Of a stretch of 64,000 nucleotides of DNA, positions 23,178 to 64,000 are shown one piece after another. This stretch comes from Moraxella caprae DSM 19149. Its GTDB lineage: Bacteria > Pseudomonadota > Gammaproteobacteria > Pseudomonadales > Moraxellaceae. Numbering within the stretch: the first letter of the stretch is position 1; each line of letters begins with the position of its first letter. The DNA lies in assembly GCF_000426885.1 (NCBI RefSeq), contig NZ_KE384583.1, positions 31,061 through 95,060 on the forward strand, read 5' to 3'. The notes beneath the pieces are model-generated. The model ran no database searches, was not told the DNA's origin, and worked only from the letters and a program-made list of their open reading frames with translations. The position numbers were made by a program, and so were the translations under genes.

Positions 23178-26051
23178 ATGACCCTACCCACCACCTACAC
23201 CCCGTCCGACATTGAACAAAAATGGTACACCACTTGGGAAGACAAAGGCTATTTTCGTCCCACCCTTGACAAGCCAAAATCCTTCTCTATCGCAACTCCC
23301 CCGCCAAACGTAACAGGCTCGCTCCATATGGGACACGGCTTTAACAACACCATTATGGACGCTCTGACTCGCTTTCATCGCATGAAAGGCTACAACACCC
23401 TATGGCAACCAGGCACCGACCACGCAGGGATTGCCACGCAAATGGTGGTGGAGCGTCAGCTAGGTTTGCAGGGCATTAGCCGTCATGACTTGGGACGTGA
23501 GAAGTTCATTGAAAAAGTGTGGGAATGGAAAGGACAGTCAGGTGGCAACATCACTCGCCAAATCCGCCGTCTAGGCTCGTCTGTGGACTGGTCTCGTGAG
23601 CGCTTTACCATGGACGATGATTTGTCCAAAGTGGTCAAAGAAGTCTTTGTGCGTTTGTATGATGAAGGGTTGATTTATCGTGGCAAACGCTTGGTAAACT
23701 GGGACTGTAAACTACACACCGCCCTATCTGACCTAGAAGTGGAAAGCGTGGAAGAGCAAGGTAATTTGTGGCATTTTAGATATTATTTTGCCGACAAAAG
23801 TTTGACAACCCAAGACGGTAAAAATTACCTTGTCGTGGCAACCACACGCCCCGAGACCCTGCTTGGCGACAGTGCGGTGGCAGTACACCCTGATGATGAG
23901 CGGTATGCCCATTTGATTGGCAAAACCATTGTCCTGCCGATTAGTGGACGTGAAGTGCCGATTGTGGCGGACGATTATGTAGAAAAAGACTTTGGCACAG
24001 GGTGCGTCAAAATTACCCCTGCTCACGATTTTAACGACTATGAGCTTGGCAAACGTCATGACCTGCCACTTATCAATATTTTTGATGAAGATGCGTGCGT
24101 CAAGACCGAGTTTGACTTTATTGCCAAAGTGGGCGAGCAAATTTCCGACCACATTACCGCACCAGCCGAGTATGCAGGACTTGACCGTTTTGTCGCTCGT
24201 AAAAAACTCGTGGAGCAAGCCCAAAACGAAAACTGGCTTGAAAAAATTGAACCCTACACCCTAAAAGCCCCTCGTGGCGACCGCTCTGGCGTGATTGTTG
24301 AGCCACTTTTGACCGACCAATGGTACGTCAAAATCGCCCCCCTTGCCGAGCCTGCCATACAAGCGGTGCAAAATGGCGACATCAAATTCGTCCCTGAGCA
24401 GTACACCAATATGTACATGGCGTGGATGCGTGATATTCAAGACTGGTGTATCAGCCGTCAGCTGTGGTGGGGACACCGCATTCCTGCGTGGTATGATGAT
24501 AATGGCAATTTTTATGTCGGTCGCAGTGAAAACGAAGTGCGTGAAAAATATAATCTGGGCGATATTGCTTTACGCCAAGATGACGATGTTTTGGATACTT
24601 GGTTTTCATCAGCTCTTTGGACTTTTTCAACGCTTGGCTGGAAAGGAACGGATGAAGATTTTGATAATGCCATTTTACAAAACTTTCACCCCACAAGCGT
24701 CCTAGTTACAGGCTTTGACATCATTTTCTTTTGGGTTGCCCGTATGATTATGATGACGCTTCATTTTGTCAAGGACAAGGACGGCAAGCCACAAGTGCCA
24801 TTTCATACCGTCTATGTACATGGCTTGGTGCGTGATAGCGAAGGGCAAAAGATGAGTAAATCCAAGGGCAACGTGCTTGACCCCTTGGATTTGATTGATA
24901 GTATTGACCTAGAAAGTCTGGTCGCCAAACGTACCACGGGGCTGATGAACCCCAAAGATGCCGTTAAAATTGAAAAAGCCACTCGCAAAGAGTTCCCCGA
25001 AGGTATTCTTGCCTATGGCACAGATGCGGTGCGTTTTACCTTTGCAAGTCTAGCCAGTACAGGGCGAGACATCAATTTTGACCTAAAACGTGTGGAAGGC
25101 TATCGTAACTTCTGCAACAAAATTTGGAACGCCACTCGCTTTGTCTTGATGAACGTAGAAGGCAAGCCAATCAGCGACACGCCCCGCCCCGAGTTTTGGG
25201 AATTATCCGAAAAATGGATAATAAGCCGACTACAAAAATGCGAACAAGCGGTAAACTTGGCGTTTGAGACCTATCGTTTTGACTTGGCAAGCCAATCTAT
25301 TTATGACTTTATTTGGAATGAATACTGCGACTGGTATGTGGAGCTTGTCAAGCCTGTCCTAAACGATGAGAGCGTGCCTGATGAGCGTAAAGCCGAGATT
25401 CGCCGTGTGCTGTTGTCAGTGCTGGAAGTCGCCTTGCGTTTGACACACCCCATTATGCCGTTTATTACCGAAGAGATTTGGCAAACGCTTGCCCCCATGC
25501 TTGGGCAGACAGGCGAGAGTATCATGCTCGCTCCATTCCCTGTGGCGGACGATGAACGCATTGACGAGCAAGCCGAAAATGATATGGCATGGCTACAAAG
25601 CCTTATCGGTGCGGTGCGAAACATTCGTGGCGAGATGAAACTGGGCAATGCCGTGCGTTTGCCTGTGCTACTGCAAGGCGTAACGGACGAAGAGAGAGCA
25701 AGCCTTGCCCGCATTGAAAGTCAGTTTAAAGCCCTTGCTAAGGTTGAGCGTTTGGAATTTTTAGGCAATGATGAAAAAGCCCCGTTATCATCATCTAGCG
25801 TGATTGGGCAAGCGGTTGTTTATGTGCCGATGAAAGGCTTGATTGACCCTACGGTGGAATTGGCTCGTCTCAATAAAGAACTGGAAAAACTTACCAAACA
25901 ATACGACCAAATCGCAAATAAACTTGCCAATGAAGGTTTTGTTGCCAAAGCACCGCCTGCGGTTGTTTCGGCTGAACGAGAGAAATTAAGTGAGCTTGAA
26001 GGGCAGATTGGGAAGGTGAAAGAGGGTATGGGGGAGATTGAGGGGTTGTAA
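23178..26051 (+). CDS. valS: Valyl-tRNA synthetase
   Basis: ValS charges tRNA-Val. The 957 residues match the family. The HIGH motif is HMGHG near residue 51, the CP1 editing domain spans about 190-345 ([17 protein letters not shown]) and the KMSKS motif is [12 protein letters not shown] near 558. The anticodon-binding domain follows, and a C-terminal coiled-coil arm begins near 890 ([18 protein letters not shown]). The AAAGGTACT ribosome site precedes the ATG. It is a monocistronic housekeeping gene flanked by lnt and a likely foreign gene. Confidence 0.97.
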
Positions 26052-26089
26052 GTTTGAAAAATACTTCCATTATCATCCTAGTATATACT

Positions 26090-26114
26090 CTTTTGGAGTT
26101 GAATGCTCCAAAAG
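26090..26114. promoter_or_regulatory. Inverted repeat between valS and the split gene
   Basis: CTTTTGGAG / CTCCAAAAG, a perfect 9-bp stem with a 7-base loop, lies 39 bases after valS and 29 bases before the next ATG. It lacks a strong T run, so it may be a weak valS terminator or an operator for the downstream gene. Confidence 0.5.
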
Positions 26115-26142
26115 ATATAATTTAATTAAATGAGGTAATTTT

Positions 26143-27684
26143 ATGTTAGTTTATGCAAATCATTTTGAAATCATAGGCAAAGACCGTGAAAGTGAAGTTT
26201 TTCGAACGATTAAAGGTTGGTTAAAAAGTATCACAAAACTTGATTTATCTATCAATGACCTAAAAAGTGGTAGTGATTTTTCGGATGAGAGTAAGTATTA
26301 TTTCATTAGAACAATCAAAGATGATGATAGCAAACAGTAATCAATCTCTTTATTTCATTATGATATAGAAATAAAAGGTAGAGAGTGGAAAACGGAAATT
26401 GGTATTAAAAATAATACAGATACTTTATTTATGTCATTAAAGGTTGAAACGATAGAGCAAAGCACACTTGTGAGTGTTCAGCCTCAATCTACACGACCTA
26501 AATTGATTAATTTTTTACAACAAAATTGTAATTTTAACTTAAATACAATAGGTTCAAGTCATGTTAATGTAGATAACTTTAATGATTTTAAAAATATAGT
26601 TTTTGATCCTAATAGAGATTATCCAATAGTCTTGGTTAGTTGTATGAATGACAGTGGATTGTCATTTGTTGATTGTGAAAAACTACAAGAGCATTTGTTT
26701 GGGTTAGCTCAGGTTTATTTTTTAGAAAATAATATCAATTCTTACGAATTTGAGAGTTTTATGGGTACTACCAAATGTTGTGCTTGGGATGGTGCAATAA
26801 ATATTATTTACCCGATTAATAAATACAGCAATATTTCCAACACACTATTTTCCAGATCGAAATTAACTGAACTTGATAAGGAATCGAGTGCTATTTTTAG
26901 AAGTATTTTGTCTTATGTTACAAATTATACAAATATCCGTAAAAAATCTAGACATTTGAGCCCTTATGACGTAAAGTTAGAAGGCTTGAAAAATCGTAGA
27001 AACAAACTGAAGGCTGAAATTAGAAATTTAAATTTTGAAAATAGTTCTGATGAGTTAGTTGAATATAAAAAATTGGCTAATGAATTATTTGAAGAATTAG
27101 CAAATGCGGAAGAAAGTTTTTCAGAAAAAATTAAGCAGCAGGAAAATAGTTTTCTTGAAATGTTATCTCAAAGTGAGGAACAAGTTAATAAACTGTCTGA
27201 TGAAAATAATAGATTGAATTCTAGAATCTATCAACTTGAATATTCTAATTCTAATACCATTCAAAACAAAGTTGGGGACAATTCTATTATTATAAATTTA
27301 AATGAAAATGATTTATATAATAATGAAATTAAACTTTTTATTTTGGAGGCAATACAAAACTATTTTAATAGTTTGCCCCAAGATGATAAAAGCACAAGAA
27401 AATATCATATTTTCAAAAACTTATTGGATTGCAATCAAGGTTTTTTAAGTCAAAAAGATGACTTTTTTAATAGATTGAAAGTTGAATTTAAGGGTTATAC
27501 TAAGTTAAACAAGAAACAAAGAGATGTGCTATCAGAATGCAATGTCGAGTTAAAAAATGAAATCTCTCATAATACTATTGGGTTTATTGGGGATGATAGA
27601 TACACAATGACATTCGCAAAAACAGCTAGCGATGCCAAAGCTGGTGATAACATTGTTCGAGATATTAAGAAACAGTTGTTTTAA
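26143..27684 (+). pseudogene. AT-rich coiled-coil protein of unknown function, split by one in-frame TAA
   Basis: One reading frame runs from 26143 to 27684 with a single stop, TAA at 26338-26340. Before it are 65 residues (starting MLVYANHFEIIGKDRESEVF) with a good ribosome site (TGAGGT). After it the sequence continues without break in character (SISLFHYDIEIKGREWKTEI) for another 448 residues. Read through, it is about 513 residues: an N-terminal beta-rich domain, an alpha/beta domain with YPIVLVSCMNDSGLSFVD and DGAINIIYPIN, a coiled coil at about 280-370, and a C-terminal alpha/beta domain ending DDRYTMTFAKTASDAKAGDN. Codon use is far more AT-rich than the neighbours, suggesting transfer. 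No named family is recognised; a lone defence gene is possible but unproven. The part from the ATG at 26431 could still be translated. Confidence 0.7.
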
Positions 27685-27690
27685 CATTTC

Positions 27691-28590
27691 TTAAAATATC
27701 CCCACCACCCCAAACACCACACTATGCCCCTGCACAATCACATCAATATCAGGGGCATAGCCACCACCCATTGTTACCGCCATTGGAATTTGCCTATTAA
27801 ACATCGTCTCTACCACATAGCGTTCTCGCTCGTACAGTCCATCCATTGTTAGATTTATCCGCCCAAGCCTATCATCAGCCAGCACATCCACCCCTGCTTG
27901 ATAAAAGACAAAATCAGGGTTAAAGTCATCCAGCACTTTGGGCAAATGGTATTTTAACAAACTTAAATACTCATCATCGCCCACACCGTCCGCCAAACCA
28001 ATGTCCAAATCCGACTTAGGCTTATGATAGGGATAATTTTTCTCACCGTGCATACTCATCACAAAGACATTGGCATTATCCGCCATGATAGACGCATTGC
28101 CATTGCCCTGATGAACATCTAAGTCAAGGATTAAAATGCGTTTGGCAAGCCCTTCTTTTAACAGCACATTGCTCGCCACACAAATGTCATTTAAAATACA
28201 AAAGCCCTCGCCACTGTCCGCAAAGGCGTGGTGCGTCCCACCCGAAGTGGACAGGCTAATGCCGTCCGTCAAGGCATAATTGGCACATTCTATGGTTGCC
28301 CCAACCACCAGCCGTTCACGGTCTATCAGGGACTTACTCATTGGCAAGCCAATTTTTCGGCAGTCTTTGGGCGATAAGGTCAGATTATCAAGGGCGTGCC
28401 AATACTCCACCGTGTGCGTGGTCAAAATCTCGTCCACGCTTGCCATTTTTGGGGTAAAAAACTGCTCGGGCGTGGCAATGCCGTCCGCAATCAGTTTTTT
28501 GGGCAAAAGTTCATATTTTGCCATGGGGAAACGGTGTCCATCTGGCAAGGGCAGGGCAAACTCGGGGCAATGAGCGATTTTAAAGAACAT
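27691..28590 (-). CDS. Histone deacetylase-family hydrolase (AcuC-like)
   Basis: A 299-residue zinc hydrolase of the arginase/deacetylase fold, which in bacteria deacetylates lysines or small amides such as polyamines. Active-site signatures are GGTHHAFADSGEGFCILND (tandem His and the downstream Gly-Phe), LDLDVHQGNGNASI (zinc Asp/His) and DFVFYQAGVDVLADDRLG (second zinc Asp). The C-terminus has MGGGYAPD with the tyrosine that polarises the substrate. It is compact compared with AcuC (about 370). It follows the YbjN-domain gene by five bases, so the two are likely co-transcribed; the specific substrate is unknown. Confidence 0.85.
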   Translation of the reverse strand: MFFKIAHCPEFALPLPDGHRFPMAKYELLPKKLIADGIATPEQFFTPKMASVDEILTTHTVEYWHALDNLTLSPKDCRKIGLPMSKSLIDRERLVVGATIECANYALTDGISLSTSGGTHHAFADSGEGFCILNDICVASNVLLKEGLAKRILILDLDVHQGNGNASIMADNANVFVMSMHGEKNYPYHKPKSDLDIGLADGVGDDEYLSLLKYHLPKVLDDFNPDFVFYQAGVDVLADDRLGRINLTMDGLYERERYVVETMFNRQIPMAVTMGGGYAPDIDVIVQGHSVVFGVVGIF

Positions 28591-32681: not shown

Positions 32682-33275
32682 ATGAAAAGATGTTTTTTAT
32701 TATCTTTAATGGTTGTTGGTTTATCAGCTTATGCCAATAACGCACACGCCAATGACACTGCCACGATTGATGGCTATAAATTACACGGTTGTACCACAGG
32801 CGGAGGCAAAAATTACTGCACGACTGATAAAAAAGAAATTTCCAAAATTATCGGCAAAAGTAAAGAGTTAAAGACAGCGAATTTCGCCCAAAATAAAAAG
32901 CTAGTACAGCTATTTTATCAAGGAAAAAACTCCCCCATCACAGACATCTTTGTCATTGATGATAAAGCAAAATCCATCTATCTTTATCCGCAATTTGCTT
33001 GGTTTAATTGGAGCATTGAGGAAAAGCAAACCTACCCCAAAAGAGCCCCAAAGGTCATTTCAAATAAAAAAAGTAACACTTTCTGTCTGCATCAGCCCTA
33101 CGCATGGTTTGATAGTTACGAACAAGAAGGGCAAATTGTCACAAGGGCGATGGTGGAATATGACATGGATGATGAGTTGCGGTATGTATGTACCAGTTTT
33201 GACAAATATGGCGACAAAGAATTTACATCAGATGAGCTCATCAAAGCCAAGGACTATCTTAAAATGGTAAAGTAA
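32682..33275 (+). CDS. Secreted hypothetical protein, paralogue 1
   Basis: 197 residues with a cleavable signal peptide (MKRCFLLSLMVVGLSAYANN, probably cut after a following AHA). The mature part has four cysteines that could form disulfides. The segment KSKELKTANFAQNKKLVQLF aligns with AHDIKSPNFAKDLKLIEY of the next gene, and the following strand pairs (TDIFVIDDKAKSIYLYP versus MAVIIDEKDKKIIPS) also match. An AAAGGA ribosome site supports the start. No family is recognised; periplasmic or secreted location is inferred. Confidence 0.7.
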   Translation: MKRCFLLSLMVVGLSAYANNAHANDTATIDGYKLHGCTTGGGKNYCTTDKKEISKIIGKSKELKTANFAQNKKLVQLFYQGKNSPITDIFVIDDKAKSIYLYPQFAWFNWSIEEKQTYPKRAPKVISNKKSNTFCLHQPYAWFDSYEQEGQIVTRAMVEYDMDDELRYVCTSFDKYGDKEFTSDELIKAKDYLKMVK

Positions 33276-33371
33276 TTTTAATTAAGGGGCTTTTTAAATG
33301 CTGCAGAATGCCTAGCACACCCCCCTTTTAAATGAAAAGGCATATTAAAGCGTAAACACTTAGGATTTTTT

Positions 33372-34061
33372 ATGAAAAAAATTATTTTTTGCACCTTGAT
33401 GATGGCTTTGGCAATGATGAGTCATGCTGATGAGTCGTATTGGTACGACATTCACTCTAACATCCCCCAAAAAACCATGAACAGCTATCGCATTCAGTGC
33501 TATTCAAAAGATGACATCTATTTGAAGATCGAGACCCTTGACAGTCAGCACCAGCCCTTTAACTTCTGTGCACAGCCTGTGGTGAATGAAATTTTAAAGA
33601 CCGCTCATGACATCAAGTCTCCGAATTTTGCCAAAGATTTAAAACTCATTGAATATCGACCTTATAATAACAAAACCTATAAAATGGCGGTCATCATTGA
33701 TGAAAAAGACAAAAAAATCATTCCATCAACGTTTGTGTATGGTCATAGGGAATATTTTTTAAATAACACTAAAAAACCAATCAAACCTACATTAAAGGCA
33801 TCTAAAGATTCCTATATGTACTGTTTTTCAGGTGATGCGAACGTTACTACCATAGATGAAATGATGGCGGGTTCCAATCGCTCAAAAAATCATCTCTGTA
33901 CGGTATTTTTGGGAGAGATTGATGGTTATTATGATTTTTTAGTGTTAGAAAGAGGCTATTATTTCGGTGCAAAACTACCTGAACAGGACAAAGAAATCTC
34001 ACAGATGATGACGCACCGAAACGCCAAAGAGCTAATTAAAAAAGCCAATCGCAAAAAATGA
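33372..34061 (+). CDS. Secreted hypothetical protein, paralogue 2
   Basis: 229 residues with signal peptide MKKIIFCTLMMALAMMSHA. It shares with the preceding gene the block around NFAKDLKLIEYRPYNNKTYK, the IIDEKDKKI strand and a late cysteine region (YMYCFSGDA, HLCTVFLGE), so the two arose by tandem duplication and have diverged strongly. The C-terminus is longer than in paralogue 1. The function is unknown; the pair ends near a GC-rich stretch without a clear terminator. Confidence 0.7.
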   Translation: MKKIIFCTLMMALAMMSHADESYWYDIHSNIPQKTMNSYRIQCYSKDDIYLKIETLDSQHQPFNFCAQPVVNEILKTAHDIKSPNFAKDLKLIEYRPYNNKTYKMAVIIDEKDKKIIPSTFVYGHREYFLNNTKKPIKPTLKASKDSYMYCFSGDANVTTIDEMMAGSNRSKNHLCTVFLGEIDGYYDFLVLERGYYFGAKLPEQDKEISQMMTHRNAKELIKKANRKK

Positions 34062-56923: not shown

Positions 56924-59900
56924 CTAAATGTTTAGCAGTTTGCCAATACGTTCCAAAAGCTCCACTTCTTGGAACGGCTTACCCATGTAGTCATTAACAC
57001 CAATCTCGAAGGCACGGTCTCGATGCTTTTCGCCCGTTCGCGATGTAATCATGATGATTGGTAGGTGACTCAAACGGGGACTGTGACGCACCTGAGTTGC
57101 GACCTCAAAACCATCCATGCGTGGCATCTCAATGTCAAGTAGCATCAAATCGGGAATATTGTCTTGTAAAATCTCAATGGCATCAACGCCATCTTTGGCA
57201 ACGATAACCTCAAAACCTTGACGTTCTAAGAAACGAGATGTGACCTTGCGTACTGTCACAGAATCGTCTACCACCATGATGAGGTGACGACGACTGACGA
57301 CAGGTTCCACCTCTTTGTTTTCTCGTTTCGCCTGAGCGGTACGCATGAGTGCCAACAGATCAAGGATGAGCATGACCGAGCCATCACCCATGATGGTTGC
57401 TGCCGAGATTCCCGATAGGTTAGAAAGCTGACGACCTAATGGCTTGACCACAATCTCAATACGAGAACCCACAATCTCATCCACCTGCAAAGCAAGGGCT
57501 TGCCCTGTCTGAGTTTTGATGATAATCACAGGCAAACTCACTCCTGAGACAATCTCATTAAAATAATTGCCTGTTAAGATTTCATTAAGATAACGCAAAC
57601 GATAGTTTTTGTTATCAATCTTGATGGTGTTATTGCCCGATTGATGATAGGTTAATAGTTCTGTGGCATTCATCTGCACCACACGCTCAATCTGCACCAG
57701 CGGGATGGCGTATTGGCGGTCAGCCACACGCACAATCAGTGCATCTGACACAGATACAGTCAATGGCACACGGATGATAAAACGAGAGCCCCTACCAAAC
57801 TCCGACTCCACCGATACCGAACCACCCAATTGACGAATCTCTGTACGCACCACATCCATACCCACGCCACGACCTGAGATTTGGGTTACTTTGTTTGTGG
57901 TGGACAGACCTGCATTAAAGATATACTGCATGATGTCGTTATCAGCAAGCTGTTCGTCGGGGTGAATCAATCCTTGACTGATGGCCTTATTACGTACCGC
58001 ATCTACATTCACGCCTGCCCCATCATCAGATAGCAAGATAACCATCTCACCCCCTTCACGTAGCACCTCTAACGTGATATGACCTGTTAATGGTTTGCCA
58101 AGCTCACTACGCTTAGCAGGCATTTCAACACCATGATCAACAGCATTACGAAGCATGTGTTCTAGCGGTGATGTAATGCGGTCAAGAATACTTCTATCCA
58201 TCTCATCATCAGCATTAATCACCGTCAGCTCTACGTTCTTGCCAAGCTCGCTTGCGGTTTGACGCACAATGCGTTGGAGGCGTGGGGTCAGTCGTGAAAA
58301 TGGCACCATCCGTGAATTCATCAGACTGTCCTGCAAGTCTGCTTGGGTACGTGATAATTGTAACAACAAGTTTTCACCATCACGGGTTTTGTCTAGCATG
58401 GTCGCTTTAATGTCTAGCAAGTCTGATGCTGACTCCGAGAGTGATTTGGACAACTGGTTAAGTGACGAATACTGGTCCATCTCCAAGGGGTCAAAATCTT
58501 CATCAAACGTACCATCATCAATCTGTGCCAGAATCTGCTCTTCTAGTTCAATATCCATGCGACGTAGCTGGTCAAACAGACGCTGAACCGTAACCCCCAT
58601 CTCCTCGATACTGCCTGTGATACTAGCAAGGTTCATGTCAATACGAGCACGGTTAATCGCCGCCTCGCCTGACAAGTTAATCATGCGTTCAAGCAGTGGG
58701 GCTGAGATACGAATCATCTCATTGTTACTGCTACTGTCCACACTTTCTCCAAACACACCTTTCATGGGTGGCATGCGGCTGATATCACGGGTATTTTTTG
58801 ATTCTGCCAAGAAGGCTTGATATTCACTGATGAAATCAATTTCATTCTCAAGCGACACCACAGGCACTTCGTTTAGGTCATCGGGGTTTTTGATGAAACA
58901 GTGCAAAGCATCTACTAACGGCGTAGGGCGAGGTGGGTTGTAGTTATGTTCTAGTAGCCCAACCGCTGATGTGATCCAATCATGACATGCAAAGAGTAGA
59001 TTTGCCACCATACGTGTTGCAGGCAGACGGCGGTTACCCAAGCCCTCATAGACCGTTTCCATCTCGTGAGCGAGGTCAGCCACACCATTGGCAGAGACCA
59101 TTCTTGCTCCACCTTTGATGGTGTGTAGCTTACGTTGCAATGCTTGCAAACTTGCCACGTCCGATGTGTTATTACGAAATGCCGCAAAGTTCTCACTACT
59201 GCTCTCAGCAAGCTCTTTAGTTTCTTCTAAGAATACACCCAAGATGTCTTTGTCAGGCAAGTTGCCCTGCCAAGAGTCTTTAATAAAACTTTGGTATCTG
59301 GCTTCTTCATCAAGCTCAGGTGTAGCAGGTTGGGCAGATGCACTCTCTTCTTTTTTGGCATCAAGCACAGGAATGGCAATCACAGCCCCCTCTGGCACTT
59401 CTCCTGCGGATAAATAAGCCTGTAAATCAGCAATGGTGTTATCTGCAAAGAAAGACTGCTTGGTATTTTTAACCGCATCTAGCTGCAAGGATAATACATC
59501 CTGCACACGTTGCATGGTGCGAACCCACGGGTCGGTGACGGTCATTTGTTTATTGGTAAAGCGTTCGTATACACTCTCTGCTTCGTGAGTTAGATCGCCA
59601 ATACTGCTAATACCTGCCAGTCTCGCTCCACCTTTTATGGTGTGCAAATGTCTTTGCAGGGTTTTTAGATGGTCAAGATTTTCCTTATCATCTCGCCATT
59701 GACCGAAAACTTCAGTTACCTCAGCATCAAGCTCCAACGCCTCATCTAAAAAGATCTCCAACAGCTCATCATCTGTGGCAATCATCTCTAAACGAATAGG
59801 TGCTTGAGAATCAGACTGTGATACTCCCTTATCAATTGATGCCTTAGATGAATCGGCATCCTCTTTAATCTTAGACTGCTCTTTTAGAGTATTGCCAAGC

Positions 59901-62900
59901 TCTTGATAATAATTCTCTCGCTCTAACGTAATGGTACTTAGGTTATTTAGAATTGATTTATCCACCGTTAACGCCATGCTACCTGCCATGGCGTCAAAGA
60001 GCCCAATGAGCTCATGATGAACCGCAAGCAAGGCATCAATAAAACTGTCATCTTTGGCTTGTTCGGCATGCTCTGCCATCAGTTCATAGGCAGGCTTTAA
60101 GGACGCAAGCAGGCTTTGAAATTTTGGCAAATCTTGCGTACGCGCTAAAAGCATGTCAATCTGAGTAAGCTGTGTTTTGGCATAATCACAAATCACATTT
60201 TGTTCTTTGGCACTCATGCCCTCCAATTCAAGCTCAGCATCAAGCAGCTCATCAATCCCATCAATCAGACTCTCTACATGATAAACATTAGTCTCATCAA
60301 GCATGAGCTCTTCAATTTCTTGCTTATCCTCAGCCAATTCCCCCAACTCTTGGGCGGTGATGAGACCGCCATCGGTTTGGTTGTAGGCATCAAGATAGCC
60401 ATCAATAAATGCCACTGCATTTTTGAGTGCTTGTTTGTGCTTATCACCCATCGGTGCATCATGATGTTGCAAACTTTGCAAACCACGCTCAATAATAGCA
60501 CCCACCTCACCCACTGCCACCAGTGGTGCCAAGCCTGATGCTCCACGCAAGGTGTGAAATGCACGCACCACCTTATTGTCCACGGGTGTCTGAGTATCTG
60601 CTTCATGTGCATTTAAAAATATTGTCACCTCCGCCAATAATTCTCTGGCTTCTTCGATAAAGATTTGGCACAGCATGTCCTCTTCATCATCTACAGGACT
60701 GCTTGGCGTGGTGTTAGACATGATCTGACCTGCCTGCTCCACCAAACTAAGTGCTTCGTGAGTGGGCTTGGTCTTCTTGTCAGTCTCATCATCTTGGGTG
60801 CGGTCTGTTTGTTCAGTGGTTTTGTCATTGATGACGTCTAGATTTGACTCACCTTCTACTGATGACGCCACCAAAACAAGCTCAGGCACCAATACTCCAT
60901 CATCTAATGACTGCAAAGCGCCATTATCGGCAACACTGTCAATGTCATCACCGTTTTCTGTATTGGCATTTTGTATATCGGTGTTTTTGTCCAACCCATC
61001 AGCTACATCCAATGTGCGATAGTCAAACTCCTTGCCATGCCCTTTGCTATAAGCGTGAGCGACCGCCTCCCACAGTTTTATCTTGGCAGGGTAATCGTCA
61101 GATTTGGATTCAAAGATGGATACCAACGCACCAAACTCGCCCAACACGTCACCGATGAGTGCCTGCATGCCATCATCCATCGGCACGGTCTCATCTAGGA
61201 CACGGTTTAGCATGTTCTCAATCGACCAAGCCAGCTCACCAAGCTCATACGCCCCAACCATACGTCCTGAGCCTTTTAGGGTGTGAAAGCCCCGGCGGAT
61301 ATCGGTCAGCGTGCCTTTGTCAGGACTGCTTTGGTATTTATCAAAAAGCGGAATGATGGTCTCTAAGACCTCGCCTGCCTCTTCGATATAAATCTCGCGA
61401 ATGTCTTCATCGACCTCCATCGGCTCATGCGTGGTTGCTTTGGCAGTCTCGATAAATGGCAATAGTACCGCAGGCATGTCCGCTGTTTGGACTTGCTCAT
61501 CATTGGTGGTATCATCAACAATCTCCTCAGAAACACTTTCGATTTCATCAGCATTTGCCAACTCATCACCAATAGACTCATCGTCATCCTCGCCAATCAT
61601 GATGTTGTCATCTGCCACATCATCACCGACCGACTCGTCTGTCTCTACTAATGGCTCGTCTTGCACCTCATATTCTATGCTCTCGCCTGCTAGGTCAGGT
61701 CTGCCTTCATCCATGGGTCTACCCGCCAAGATATTATTGGCACGCATGACTACCAGTGCATTATCCACGCTCGGGGGTTGACTGCTTGCAAAGTCCTGCA
61801 CCATAACAGGGATAATTTCGGCAGTCTCACTAACGATGGCCACCACATCAGGACTGACTTTGATCGTCTCGTCTAGAACACGGTTAAGCATATTTTCAAT
61901 GGCCCAAGCAGTCTCACCCACTTGAAATGCCCCAACCATACGCCCTGAGCCTTTTAGGGTGTGCCAATTACGGCGAATCTCTTTTAGCGGTTTGAGATTT
62001 TGGGGGTCAGCTTGCCATTTTGGTAGGTGCGTGTGCATCTCTTCCATGACTTCATCGACCTCTTCGATGAAAATCTCACGGAATTCTTCATCATGACTAA
62101 AATCATCTTCTTTTAGGCTTGCCTTGGCAGCAAGATAAACCTCACTTAGCCCATCTGTAGCCTGCCCCTCTGCTACGTCTTGTTTTGTCTCACCAAGAAC
62201 TACCACTTGCTCATCAGACTCTTTTTGGGCAAGTTTTTCATCGGCAATATCAGCAATATTGATATTATTCGTATCGTCTGCATCATCTATATCGTCAAAA
62301 ATAACATCAGCTTCGCCAATCATCTCATCATCAAAGACGACTTCATCAAACACATCTTGGTCTGGCAAATCTTGGCTATTGTCGGCTTGAACAACATCTA
62401 CATCATCGACAACCATCTCATCTTCGTTGGTGCCATTTTCAGGTAGCTCATCAGTCAATAACTCACTACTTGCAAGACTTGGTACAACATTATCCACCGT
62501 GCCTTCATTGACATAATCAGACAACAAAATTTCATCATCTTCTTGGGTTGCATACACACCATCTTCTGCCGTGTGAGGCTCTTGGTCGGGCAACTCATCC
62601 ACCATAAGTTCATCGTCGTCAAGCTTCTCATCATCCAAGGTCAATGCAATACTGTCATCAAATAAATCTAACTCAATATCTTCATCAGGCAAATGATTGA
62701 TGATTTGTGGCTCATCTTGGACTGGGTCATCATCTAAGCGTGGATTTTGGCTTTGGTCGCCTACTTGACCGACTGCCAAAACTGGTTCATCAACAAAAAT
62801 ATCATCAAACAGCTCATCATCTGCCACATCAAAGTCGACTGTTTCACTCTTTGTGGATGTTTTGATGTCATCAACACCAAAATTATCATCAAAGGTAAGC

Positions 62901-64000
62901 GTATCATCAAACAAATCATCAAAATCATCTTGGCTGATTTGGTTGTCTTGGGCGACTTGATGGCTGATATTAATACTCTCATCAGGTGTTATGATGGCTG
63001 TCTTATGAGCATCATGAATGTCTAGACCAATCTCATCCAAAGTCTTATCATGCATGCCATCAATGCTAACGTCAATAACATCAACATCATTCTCTGCTTT
63101 GGCATCATCCAAAGACATGTCATCCGCTGGCAACTCATCGATGGTCAATGTACCATCTAACTCAAAATCATCAATAACCTGCTCGGTTTGATTTTCATCT
63201 TGGGCATTTTTTTGCACAGACGGCTCAACCATCTGACTTTCAAAGACGACATCATGAGCCAGTTCTCGCCCATCTTCTGCTTCGCTGTCTTGCCCATCAT
63301 TAACATCTAGATTGACATCAATACCTAATCCCAAATCCACATTTGTATTTGTGTCTGTATCCAAAACATCTTGGATGCCATCTTGAGCGTCGTCAAGGTT
63401 TGTTTGTGATGGCAAAGTGGGGACATGCTCGCCTGCGTCATCATAAACCGTGACATGCTGATGAGCAGAGTGACGTGCCATCTCCACATCATGCAGTTCA
63501 GGCTCGCTTAGATTGGCATCAAGCAGTAGTCTTTGAGCATCATCGGTGCATTCTTCTGTTCGGATGAGTAGAGCATGGTCAAATACTTGTTGTGCCAAAT
63601 TATCAAGAAACATCTCAAACAAAGACAAACACTCGGCAGTCTTATGAGCGATTTGCCATGGGATATGATTTGGTGATTTTTCTTGGAGCAGGGTAAATAC
63701 CCCCGCAATTTTTGTTGCCACTGTCGCCGCATCAAATAACCCTAGGTCATTAAAGTTTTTAACCAGTAACTCAAAATTCTTAGATGATGGCAGTTTATCA
63801 GCTTGTTTATGGTTTAGGTAATCTGAGAACTTATCTTTGACTTCTTCTATTAAGATACGAACTTCACGAAGCACATCTCGCTCATTGGCAACAATGTCAT
63901 CATGACGACCGCCTTTGGTGTTGATAACCTCGGCGGTACTGGCGATGGCAGTATACAAATCTTGGAGCTGAGTGTTGAGTTGCCATTGCATTTGGGCAAA
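56924..64000 (-). CDS. chpA: Hybrid chemotaxis histidine kinase ChpA (5' end outside window)
   Basis: At least 2,358 residues of the kinase controlling type IV pili. An acidic linker occupies about 190-640. Five Hpt domains carry HTxKG-type histidines: HTLKGSGRMVGAF (~677), HTLKGSGRMVGAY (~903), HTLRGASGLAPL (~1145), HTIKGGARLAGI (~1449) and HTIKGGARMVSA (~1624); the third has Arg for Lys. A CheA-like dimerisation and ATPase region follows (LEHMLRNAVDHGVEMP ~1945, GRGVGMDVV), then a CheW domain, and a C-terminal receiver with its phosphoacceptor in LLLDIEMPRMDG (~2285). The frame is open to the right edge, so the start is beyond it. It leads the chpB-chpC genes. Confidence 0.93.
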   Translation of the reverse strand, partial: FAQMQWQLNTQLQDLYTAIASTAEVINTKGGRHDDIVANERDVLREVRILIEEVKDKFSDYLNHKQADKLPSSKNFELLVKNFNDLGLFDAATVATKIAGVFTLLQEKSPNHIPWQIAHKTAECLSLFEMFLDNLAQQVFDHALLIRTEECTDDAQRLLLDANLSEPELHDVEMARHSAHQHVTVYDDAGEHVPTLPSQTNLDDAQDGIQDVLDTDTNTNVDLGLGIDVNLDVNDGQDSEAEDGRELAHDVVFESQMVEPSVQKNAQDENQTEQVIDDFELDGTLTIDELPADDMSLDDAKAENDVDVIDVSIDGMHDKTLDEIGLDIHDAHKTAIITPDESINISHQVAQDNQISQDDFDDLFDDTLTFDDNFGVDDIKTSTKSETVDFDVADDELFDDIFVDEPVLAVGQVGDQSQNPRLDDDPVQDEPQIINHLPDEDIELDLFDDSIALTLDDEKLDDDELMVDELPDQEPHTAEDGVYATQEDDEILLSDYVNEGTVDNVVPSLASSELLTDELPENGTNEDEMVVDDVDVVQADNSQDLPDQDVFDEVVFDDEMIGEADVIFDDIDDADDTNNINIADIADEKLAQKESDEQVVVLGETKQDVAEGQATDGLSEVYLAAKASLKEDDFSHDEEFREIFIEEVDEVMEEMHTHLPKWQADPQNLKPLKEIRRNWHTLKGSGRMVGAFQVGETAWAIENMLNRVLDETIKVSPDVVAIVSETAEIIPVMVQDFASSQPPSVDNALVVMRANNILAGRPMDEGRPDLAGESIEYEVQDEPLVETDESVGDDVADDNIMIGEDDDESIGDELANADEIESVSEEIVDDTTNDEQVQTADMPAVLLPFIETAKATTHEPMEVDEDIREIYIEEAGEVLETIIPLFDKYQSSPDKGTLTDIRRGFHTLKGSGRMVGAYELGELAWSIENMLNRVLDETVPMDDGMQALIGDVLGEFGALVSIFESKSDDYPAKIKLWEAVAHAYSKGHGKEFDYRTLDVADGLDKNTDIQNANTENGDDIDSVADNGALQSLDDGVLVPELVLVASSVEGESNLDVINDKTTEQTDRTQDDETDKKTKPTHEALSLVEQAGQIMSNTTPSSPVDDEEDMLCQIFIEEARELLAEVTIFLNAHEADTQTPVDNKVVRAFHTLRGASGLAPLVAVGEVGAIIERGLQSLQHHDAPMGDKHKQALKNAVAFIDGYLDAYNQTDGGLITAQELGELAEDKQEIEELMLDETNVYHVESLIDGIDELLDAELELEGMSAKEQNVICDYAKTQLTQIDMLLARTQDLPKFQSLLASLKPAYELMAEHAEQAKDDSFIDALLAVHHELIGLFDAMAGSMALTVDKSILNNLSTITLERENYYQELGNTLKEQSKIKEDADSSKASIDKGVSQSDSQAPIRLEMIATDDELLEIFLDEALELDAEVTEVFGQWRDDKENLDHLKTLQRHLHTIKGGARLAGISSIGDLTHEAESVYERFTNKQMTVTDPWVRTMQRVQDVLSLQLDAVKNTKQSFFADNTIADLQAYLSAGEVPEGAVIAIPVLDAKKEESASAQPATPELDEEARYQSFIKDSWQGNLPDKDILGVFLEETKELAESSSENFAAFRNNTSDVASLQALQRKLHTIKGGARMVSANGVADLAHEMETVYEGLGNRRLPATRMVANLLFACHDWITSAVGLLEHNYNPPRPTPLVDALHCFIKNPDDLNEVPVVSLENEIDFISEYQAFLAESKNTRDISRMPPMKGVFGESVDSSSNNEMIRISAPLLERMINLSGEAAINRARIDMNLASITGSIEEMGVTVQRLFDQLRRMDIELEEQILAQIDDGTFDEDFDPLEMDQYSSLNQLSKSLSESASDLLDIKATMLDKTRDGENLLLQLSRTQADLQDSLMNSRMVPFSRLTPRLQRIVRQTASELGKNVELTVINADDEMDRSILDRITSPLEHMLRNAVDHGVEMPAKRSELGKPLTGHITLEVLREGGEMVILLSDDGAGVNVDAVRNKAISQGLIHPDEQLADNDIMQYIFNAGLSTTNKVTQISGRGVGMDVVRTEIRQLGGSVSVESEFGRGSRFIIRVPLTVSVSDALIVRVADRQYAIPLVQIERVVQMNATELLTYHQSGNNTIKIDNKNYRLRYLNEILTGNYFNEIVSGVSLPVIIIKTQTGQALALQVDEIVGSRIEIVVKPLGRQLSNLSGISAATIMGDGSVMLILDLLALMRTAQAKRENKEVEPVVSRRHLIMVVDDSVTVRKVTSRFLERQGFEVIVAKDGVDAIEILQDNIPDLMLLDIEMPRMDGFEVATQVRHSPRLSHLPIIMITSRTGEKHRDRAFEIGVNDYMGKPFQEVELLERIGKLLNI

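What the first reader, a model, noticed from the sequence alone, without database searches (positions are those of the whole stretch)
26143..27684. Foreign-looking coiled-coil gene split by one stop codon
A 513-codon frame is interrupted only by TAA at 26338-26340 (CAG TAA TCA). The gene is much more AT-rich than valS and the HDAC-like gene it sits between, and it is a lone insertion. The domain order (beta-rich start, alpha/beta core, long coiled coil, C-terminal alpha/beta domain) matches no family I can name and is reminiscent of single-gene phage-defence proteins. The stop could be real inactivation, phase variation by mutation, or a sequencing error.
Basis: partly seen in the sequence, partly recalled or inferred. 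Interest (0 to 1): 0.65.

Follow-up and report, generated by a model that had tools for sequence, protein, structure and literature searches.

The report
Broken single-gene phage-defence candidate
A foreign, AT-rich gene sitting in a spot where related bacteria keep different phage-defence genes is a stop-interrupted copy of a little-studied defence candidate whose tail resembles an RNA-cutting toxin; intact copies exist in other bacteria.

Summary
In detail: 26143-27684 is one 513-codon frame broken only by TAA at 26338-26340; GC is 0.28 against 0.48 and 0.47 in its neighbours. It is not family-less: residues 58-369 match HEC-07, a PADLOC candidate anti-phage family (E 6e-13). Five relatives with the same full architecture are intact, in other genera. 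Relatives look like integron cassettes (one near AriAB/PARIS), lie in a prophage, inside BREX, near GajA, or singly beside dnaK or ychF. The valS/HDAC gap is itself variable: of 16 congeners where both flanks were seen, 10 carry restriction or defence-like genes, 3 uncharacterised AT-rich genes, 2 other genes, 1 is empty. Models suggest a START-like and a thioredoxin-like domain, then a coiled coil. Instead of the usual HEC-07 end there is an end that resembles HicA toxins; the tests for this are individually weak but converge. Best reading: a horizontally acquired, recently inactivated single-gene defence candidate, possibly a fused sensor-toxin. Defence activity, RNase activity and the reality of the stop in the living strain are untested. 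New variant of a known candidate family.

The parts
26143..27684 (+). interrupted gene, HEC-07-like, 513 codons with one internal stop
26338..26340 (+). internal TAA, codon 66, inside the START-like domain
26143..26532 (+). START-like (helix-grip) domain, about residues 1-130, placed by alignment to the model of L018
   Evidence: Z 8.3, rmsd 3.5, 120 aligned for L018
26545..26937 (+). thioredoxin-like domain without a CxxC pair, about residues 135-265
   Evidence: Z 9.8, rmsd 3.1, 110 aligned for L018
26962..27267 (+). coiled-coil region, about residues 274-375
27508..27681 (+). HicA-like C-terminal domain, about residues 456-513; the His that is invariant in the 11 rows of the alignment is residue 476 (27568-27570)
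26089..26115 (+). hairpin (11-bp stem) between valS and the gene; possibly the valS terminator
   Evidence: 1 found; shuffles mean 0.5
23178..26051 (+). valS, left flank of the variable site
27691..28590 (-). HDAC-like gene, right flank of the variable site

Best explanation
The gene is a horizontally acquired, recently interrupted copy of a single-gene anti-phage defence candidate of the HEC-07 kind, lodged in a site between convergent valS and an HDAC-like gene where this genus exchanges defence genes. Intact forms probably work as a fused sensor-toxin: the START-like and thioredoxin-like half senses something made during infection (inferred), the coiled coil holds an oligomer in an inactive state (inferred), and activation frees the HicA-like end to bind and probably cut RNA, stopping growth before phage release (inferred, by analogy with fused toxin-antitoxins such as CapRel, which PMC10865869 discusses in a passage seen). 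In the window strain the stop after 65 codons should leave it inactive unless it is a sequencing error. Shown: frame, stop, family match, intact relatives, mobile and defence-linked contexts, variable site. Moderately supported: the HicA-like end. Not shown: defence, RNase activity, trigger.
For: HEC-07 match E 6.1e-13 over residues 58-369 and E 5e-20 to 4e-28 for four of the intact relatives (L024 5.6e-19, L021 5.2e-20, L020 2.4e-27, L018 3.7e-28). Contexts: between PglX- and PglZ-type genes, near GajA, near AriAB in a cassette-like array, behind prophage tail genes. Variable site: 10 of 16 congener gaps hold restriction or defence-like genes. HicA-like end: helix-strand-strand-strand-helix in the model, the order given for HicA in PMC10865869; hhalign P 0.0011, above 300 of 300 column shuffles; HicA second of 5 PDB sequence matches, E 0.15; Pfam HicA_toxin in 3 of 11 members, more than any other family; PADLOC HicA-like E 4.8e-4 for L024; one His invariant in 11 of 11 rows. 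The window copy keeps 33 of 38 columns invariant in the other 9 rows, which fits recent inactivation.
Against: No experiment. HEC-07 itself is only a candidate, and no paper on its activity was found. The HicA tests are each weak: hhalign probability only 20%; no Pfam match over the cut-off, and HicA_toxin not listed at all for the longer 155-residue pieces; the longer profile ranks HicA only eighth of 10 PDB matches, E 1.9; PADLOC HicA-like appears for 1 of the 7 proteins with this end and not for P0001 or L009; model confidence there is 41-76. Two of 16 congener gaps hold genes that do not look like defence, 3 more are uncharacterised, 1 is empty. Foldseek found no match at E 0.001 or better. 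The window row has a long end branch, which could mean more decay than I assume.
Confidence: 0.6

Rival explanations
1. It is of the HEC-07 defence kind, but the C-terminal domain is an RNA- or protein-binding sensor and the N-terminal START-like/thioredoxin-like half is the effector or passes a signal on.
For: The end differs between sub-groups while the front is kept, which would also fit an exchangeable sensor on a constant effector; the model resembles a dsRBD, which binds RNA.
Against: No catalytic motif was found in the front: no CxxC and no P-loop in the window protein or the five intact relatives. The invariant His in the end fits a HicA-type active site (His role recalled).
Confidence: 0.2
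2. A selfish or plasmid-type element gene (addiction or competition with other mobile elements) rather than anti-phage defence.
For: Relatives sit on small and large plasmids and in 7 viral contigs; a gene annotated as RelE/ParE toxin lies just upstream of the L009 copy.
Against: Location inside BREX, near GajA and AriAB and in a site used by restriction genes. Mobile elements also carry defence genes, so the two readings overlap.
Confidence: 0.15
3. The stop is a sequencing or assembly error and the window strain has a working gene.
For: One stop only, 447 open codons after it, conserved columns kept at about the rate of L021 (33 of 38 against 33 of 37).
Against: Nothing direct; the same pattern is expected from a recent real mutation. 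Separate breakage in relatives shows that such genes do get broken: two parts with a transposase-like gene between them in G497, and a shortened copy beside Tn4401 in a Citrobacter plasmid.
Confidence: 0.25

Closest known systems
HEC-07 (Hma-embedded candidate 7), PADLOC-DB 2.0.0, model PDLC04161
   Same: START-like plus thioredoxin-like front and coiled coil, alignable over residues 58-369; the L028 model of the usual type shows the same thioredoxin-like core
   Different: The usual HEC-07 end, shared with NsnC, is replaced by a HicA-like end in the window protein and its closest-architecture relatives
HicA toxins (Pfam PF07927)
   Same: Predicted helix-strand-strand-strand-helix end with an invariant His; weak profile matches
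   Different: Part of a 500-residue protein, no HicB-type gene beside it among the ORFs listed, no match over the Pfam cut-off
HicA fusion classes 11-14 of Gerdes 2024 (PMC10865869)
   Same: HicA domain fused in a one-gene unit; class 14 has a coiled coil and a C-terminal HicA domain
   Different: Those fronts are HicB, mainly helical or SMC (passages); here START-like and thioredoxin-like, and without a P-loop
CapRel-type fused toxin-antitoxins (passage in PMC10865869)
   Same: Proposed: one protein with sensor and toxin parts
   Different: Unrelated domains; trigger and toxin activity untested here

Membership tests
HEC-07 (PADLOC) | Sequence match to the PADLOC model over the front and coiled coil | tested here: met
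   E 6.1e-13, residues 58-369 to model 84-395 of 553; PADLOC's own cut-off was not shown
HEC-07 (PADLOC) | Match over the C-terminal part of the model | tested here: not met
   Match ends at model position 395 of 553; hhalign of the two ends finds no similarity, P 0.66. Hence 'variant of', not plain member
HEC-07 (PADLOC) | Occurrence within or beside defence systems | tested here: met
   Relatives in BREX, near GajA and AriAB; the window copy itself in a site used by restriction genes. Embedding in an Hma system was not tested
HicA toxin | Profile match over the Pfam cut-off | tested here: not met
   3 of 11 members match HicA_toxin, best E 0.059, none over the cut-off
HicA toxin | dsRBD fold, helix-strand-strand-strand-helix | tested here: inconclusive
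   Right order in the L018 model, but pLDDT only 41-76 there; the domain was not folded alone
HicA toxin | Conserved His in the second strand region (role recalled) | tested here: met
   His invariant in 11 of 11 rows; in register with the HicA alignment by hhalign
HicA toxin | RNase activity neutralised by HicB | not testable with these tools
   No HicB-type gene was recognised among the neighbouring ORFs (by eye); activity needs an experiment
SMC-HicA fusion (class 14) | SMC ATPase with P-loop | tested here: not met
   No P-loop pattern in the window protein or the five intact relatives

The most novel reading that the evidence does not exclude
A so far undescribed class of one-gene phage defence: a START-like/thioredoxin-like sensor carries on a coiled coil an exchangeable end, either the usual HEC-07/NsnC end or a HicA-like RNA-targeting toxin. 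It travels as integron cassette, prophage cargo and lone chromosomal insert, and is found broken more than once, perhaps because it is costly.
Probability: 0.4. Interest if true: 0.65.

Novelty: new variant of a known kind. Interest (0 to 1): 0.5.

Why it matters
HEC-07 is a named defence candidate; no description of its mechanism was found in the searches made here. A sub-group with a recognisable toxin-like end would give it a directly testable mechanism and suggest that ends are exchanged between proteins. The valS-HDAC gap is a ready place to look for further defence genes in this genus: 3 of 16 congeners carry uncharacterised AT-rich genes there.

Tried and rejected
Phase variation by repeats: no long homopolymer or short repeat. 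Housekeeping gene of the genus: 0 of the 21 congeners searched has a match. SMC/ATPase coiled-coil protein: JetC matches only at E 0.03-0.04, no P-loop. Relation of the usual HEC-07 end to HicA, or to the HicA-like end: none by hhalign. A RelE-like reading of the usual end (my guess from memory): a profile search of PDB sequences gave no support, best E 1.2. Paper search for NsnC: the listing held unrelated papers. Paper search for Moraxella with valS: nothing on this site in the 8 of 75 papers listed.

Exchange of ends: the tree of the N-terminal parts needs 4 changes of end type among 23 rows (0 of 200 bootstrap trees with one) and 3 among 17 rows (0 of 200), but the AU test does not reject one clade (p 0.169 with the window row, 0.185 without). 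Repeated exchange is suggested, not shown. Rows left out: L009, L013, L016, L032, L034 (distant HicA-like rows) and L029 (long branch).

Viral contigs: A2 and L018 found no relative; A1 found 7 loci, of which 6 have the usual end and 0 the HicA-like end at E 0.001. E. coli genomes: no match for L024 or L023. Phage records: no match for P0001 or L018. In the fold searches HicA does not appear among the rows shown, which says nothing, as the thioredoxin-like part filled the lists. The column shuffling is a lenient control, since it also destroys ordinary helix/strand patterning; reversing either alignment gave scores of about 10 against 22.7.

Full report
Observation. The frame 26143-27684 is open for 513 codons except for TAA at 26338-26340. 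The 447 codons after the stop are open, while 2000 letter shuffles of that stretch never exceed 162 open codons. GC is 0.28; the part 26431-27684 is the lowest of the 49 long ORFs of the window. The gene lies alone between convergent valS and the HDAC-like gene.

Family. For the two pieces, and for the read-through protein, no Pfam match reached its cut-off; for the two pieces no NCBIfam match did. PADLOC gave HEC-07, E 6.3e-8 for the 417-residue downstream piece and 6.1e-13 for the read-through protein, residues 58-369. HEC stands for Hma-embedded candidate. PMC12988326 (passages) says that several HECs, including HEC-06, showed antiviral activity; HEC-07 is not mentioned in those passages. 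A search for 'HEC-07' found one unrelated paper. PMC8565338 (passages) defines Hma as a helicase, methyltransferase and ATPase system.

Relatives. Of 57 near-relative genomes 2 have a match, own included; none of the 21 congeners does (searched with the 417-residue piece). Of 369 genomes of the class, 6 have one, own included. Of 398 of the phylum, 4 have a match to the end, own included. Plasmids: 28 of 72,556 records. Phage records: 0 of 50,697. Genome contigs: 12 loci, from one peptide pattern. Five of the 12 match over residues 1-513 and are open frames: L018 Allopseudospirillum, L019 Marinobacterium, L020 Alteromonas, L021 Haemophilus parainfluenzae, L024 Providencia rettgeri. L009, L013, L016, L032 and, in two parts, G497 share the end with a diverged front.

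Where relatives sit. L018 and L019 share 1570 bases at 98% that stop sharply on both sides. Behind the L019 gene lies a palindromic, attC-like stretch (DNA fold z -3.9; likeness to attC recalled). In L018 there is an integrase-family gene, read as an integron integrase (phage-integrase match; the finer name is recalled), and an AriAB gene, E 9e-228. These two copies therefore look like integron cassettes. The pattern scan for attC found six candidate sites in L018 and none in L019, where the stretch was seen by eye. L020 follows prophage genes (head-tail adaptor, endolysin, tail terminator, neck/tail completion). L021 lies behind dnaK, with dnaJ two genes further, and L024 behind ychF, both singly (gene names by eye). 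L025, the same protein as L004, lies between PglX- and PglZ-type genes. L028 lies about 3.7 kb from a GajA-type gene, E 1.5e-186. L023 lies next to an integrase gene.

The site. valS was found in 21 of 22 genomes of the genus, own included. Stretches downstream of valS were fetched for 20 congeners; the HDAC-like gene was found in 16 of the 20. Of the other four, three end at a contig end and one (G004) shows none in 7 kb. In the 16 the gap is 99 to 6053 bases. Ten proteins from nine genomes were scanned. Seven of the 16 gaps gave matches to restriction or defence families: AbiJ_NTD4 (PADLOC PDC-S32); a mad8-like ATPase (weak, E 1.1e-5); a restriction-type cluster with a MutH-like protein (weak, under the cut-off; its methyltransferases recognised by eye); type IIG plus PDC-S18; DpnI; MmeI type; PDC-M16A with a TOTE domain. 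Three more (L067, L073, L074) hold 80-98% identical copies of that cluster's genes or of DpnI. Three (L058, L071, L064) hold AT-rich genes without a PADLOC match: two related operons (one protein scanned, the other compared by blastp) and one PIN_12 protein. Two (L063, L076) hold genes that by eye look like a transporter and a sulfatase-type membrane protein; these were not scanned. One (G008) is empty. In 13 of the 16 the insert has GC 0.28-0.33 with 0.42-0.51 around it.

Architecture. AlphaFold2 of intact L018 (12 rows, mean pLDDT 77.1) and of usual-type L028 (6 rows, 77.7). VIA-align for L018: thioredoxin-like core Z 9.8, rmsd 3.1, 110 aligned; START-like front Z 8.3, rmsd 3.5, 120 aligned. 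For L028: thioredoxin-like core Z 9.8, rmsd 2.9, 104 aligned. Foldseek itself reached only E 5e-3 to 7e-3, with helix-grip proteins on top, and none at 0.001. There is no CxxC and no P-loop in the window protein or the five intact relatives, so redox and ATPase activity are unlikely.

The end. The usual HEC-07 proteins end in a domain shared with NsnC. The window type ends otherwise, with a His invariant in 11 of 11 rows. For HicA likeness: strand and helix order in the model, the one that PMC10865869 gives for HicA (introduction read); HicA second of 5 PDB sequence matches, E 0.15; Pfam HicA_toxin in 3 of 11 members, best E 0.059; PADLOC HicA-like E 4.8e-4 for L024; hhalign P 0.0011, probability 20%, against P 0.66 and 0.18 for comparisons with the usual end, and above 300 of 300 shuffles. 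Against it: HicA_toxin not listed for the 9 longer pieces, HicA eighth of 10 at E 1.9 for the longer profile, HicA-like listed for 1 of 7 proteins of this type and for neither P0001 nor L009, and low model confidence (41-76). Taken together I put the HicA-like reading at about two in three.

Literature. Gerdes (PMC10865869; abstract, introduction and passages) lists 14 contexts of HicA domains; none in those passages has this front. DefensePredictor (PMC13092281, passages) names a HicA mRNA interferase among newly validated defence domains; that protein was not compared here.

State of the gene. The window row keeps 33 of 38 columns invariant in the other 9 rows; L021 keeps 33 of 37 and L012 33 of 48. 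Decay is thus not far advanced, although its end branch in the trees is long (1.25 and 1.49). A restart at the ATG at 26431 would give 417 residues without most of the START-like domain, probably inactive (inference).

Verdict. An interrupted copy of a candidate defence gene, in a variable site used by defence genes, with an unusual toxin-like end. The defence reading is well supported by context; the fused sensor-toxin mechanism is a moderate inference.

Noticed in passing
L058:666-3057 and L071:719-3095 (valS-HDAC gap of two congeners): Related AT-rich operon (64-70% identical proteins) at the defence site; the one protein scanned (L058:1831-3054) has no Pfam or PADLOC match: a possible unrecognised defence operon.
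   Followed up: partly
L064:756-2632: AT-rich PIN_12-domain gene at the same site, with smaller ORFs behind it; no PADLOC match for the PIN protein.
   Followed up: partly
L033 and L034 (G497): A HicA-like-end relative found in two parts with a transposase-like gene between them, so breakage of these genes is not unique to the window.
   Followed up: no
L074:707-2467 and L070:649-2408: In gaps with DpnI, short pieces of the methyltransferase genes flank DpnI, as if a methylase-type restriction cluster had been replaced by a methyl-directed one.
   Followed up: no
window 56924-63991, minus: A 2355-residue ORF runs nearly to the window's end; not examined.
   Followed up: no
window 32682-34061: Two neighbouring lower-GC ORFs (0.36-0.38), by eye small secreted proteins; not examined.
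   Followed up: no
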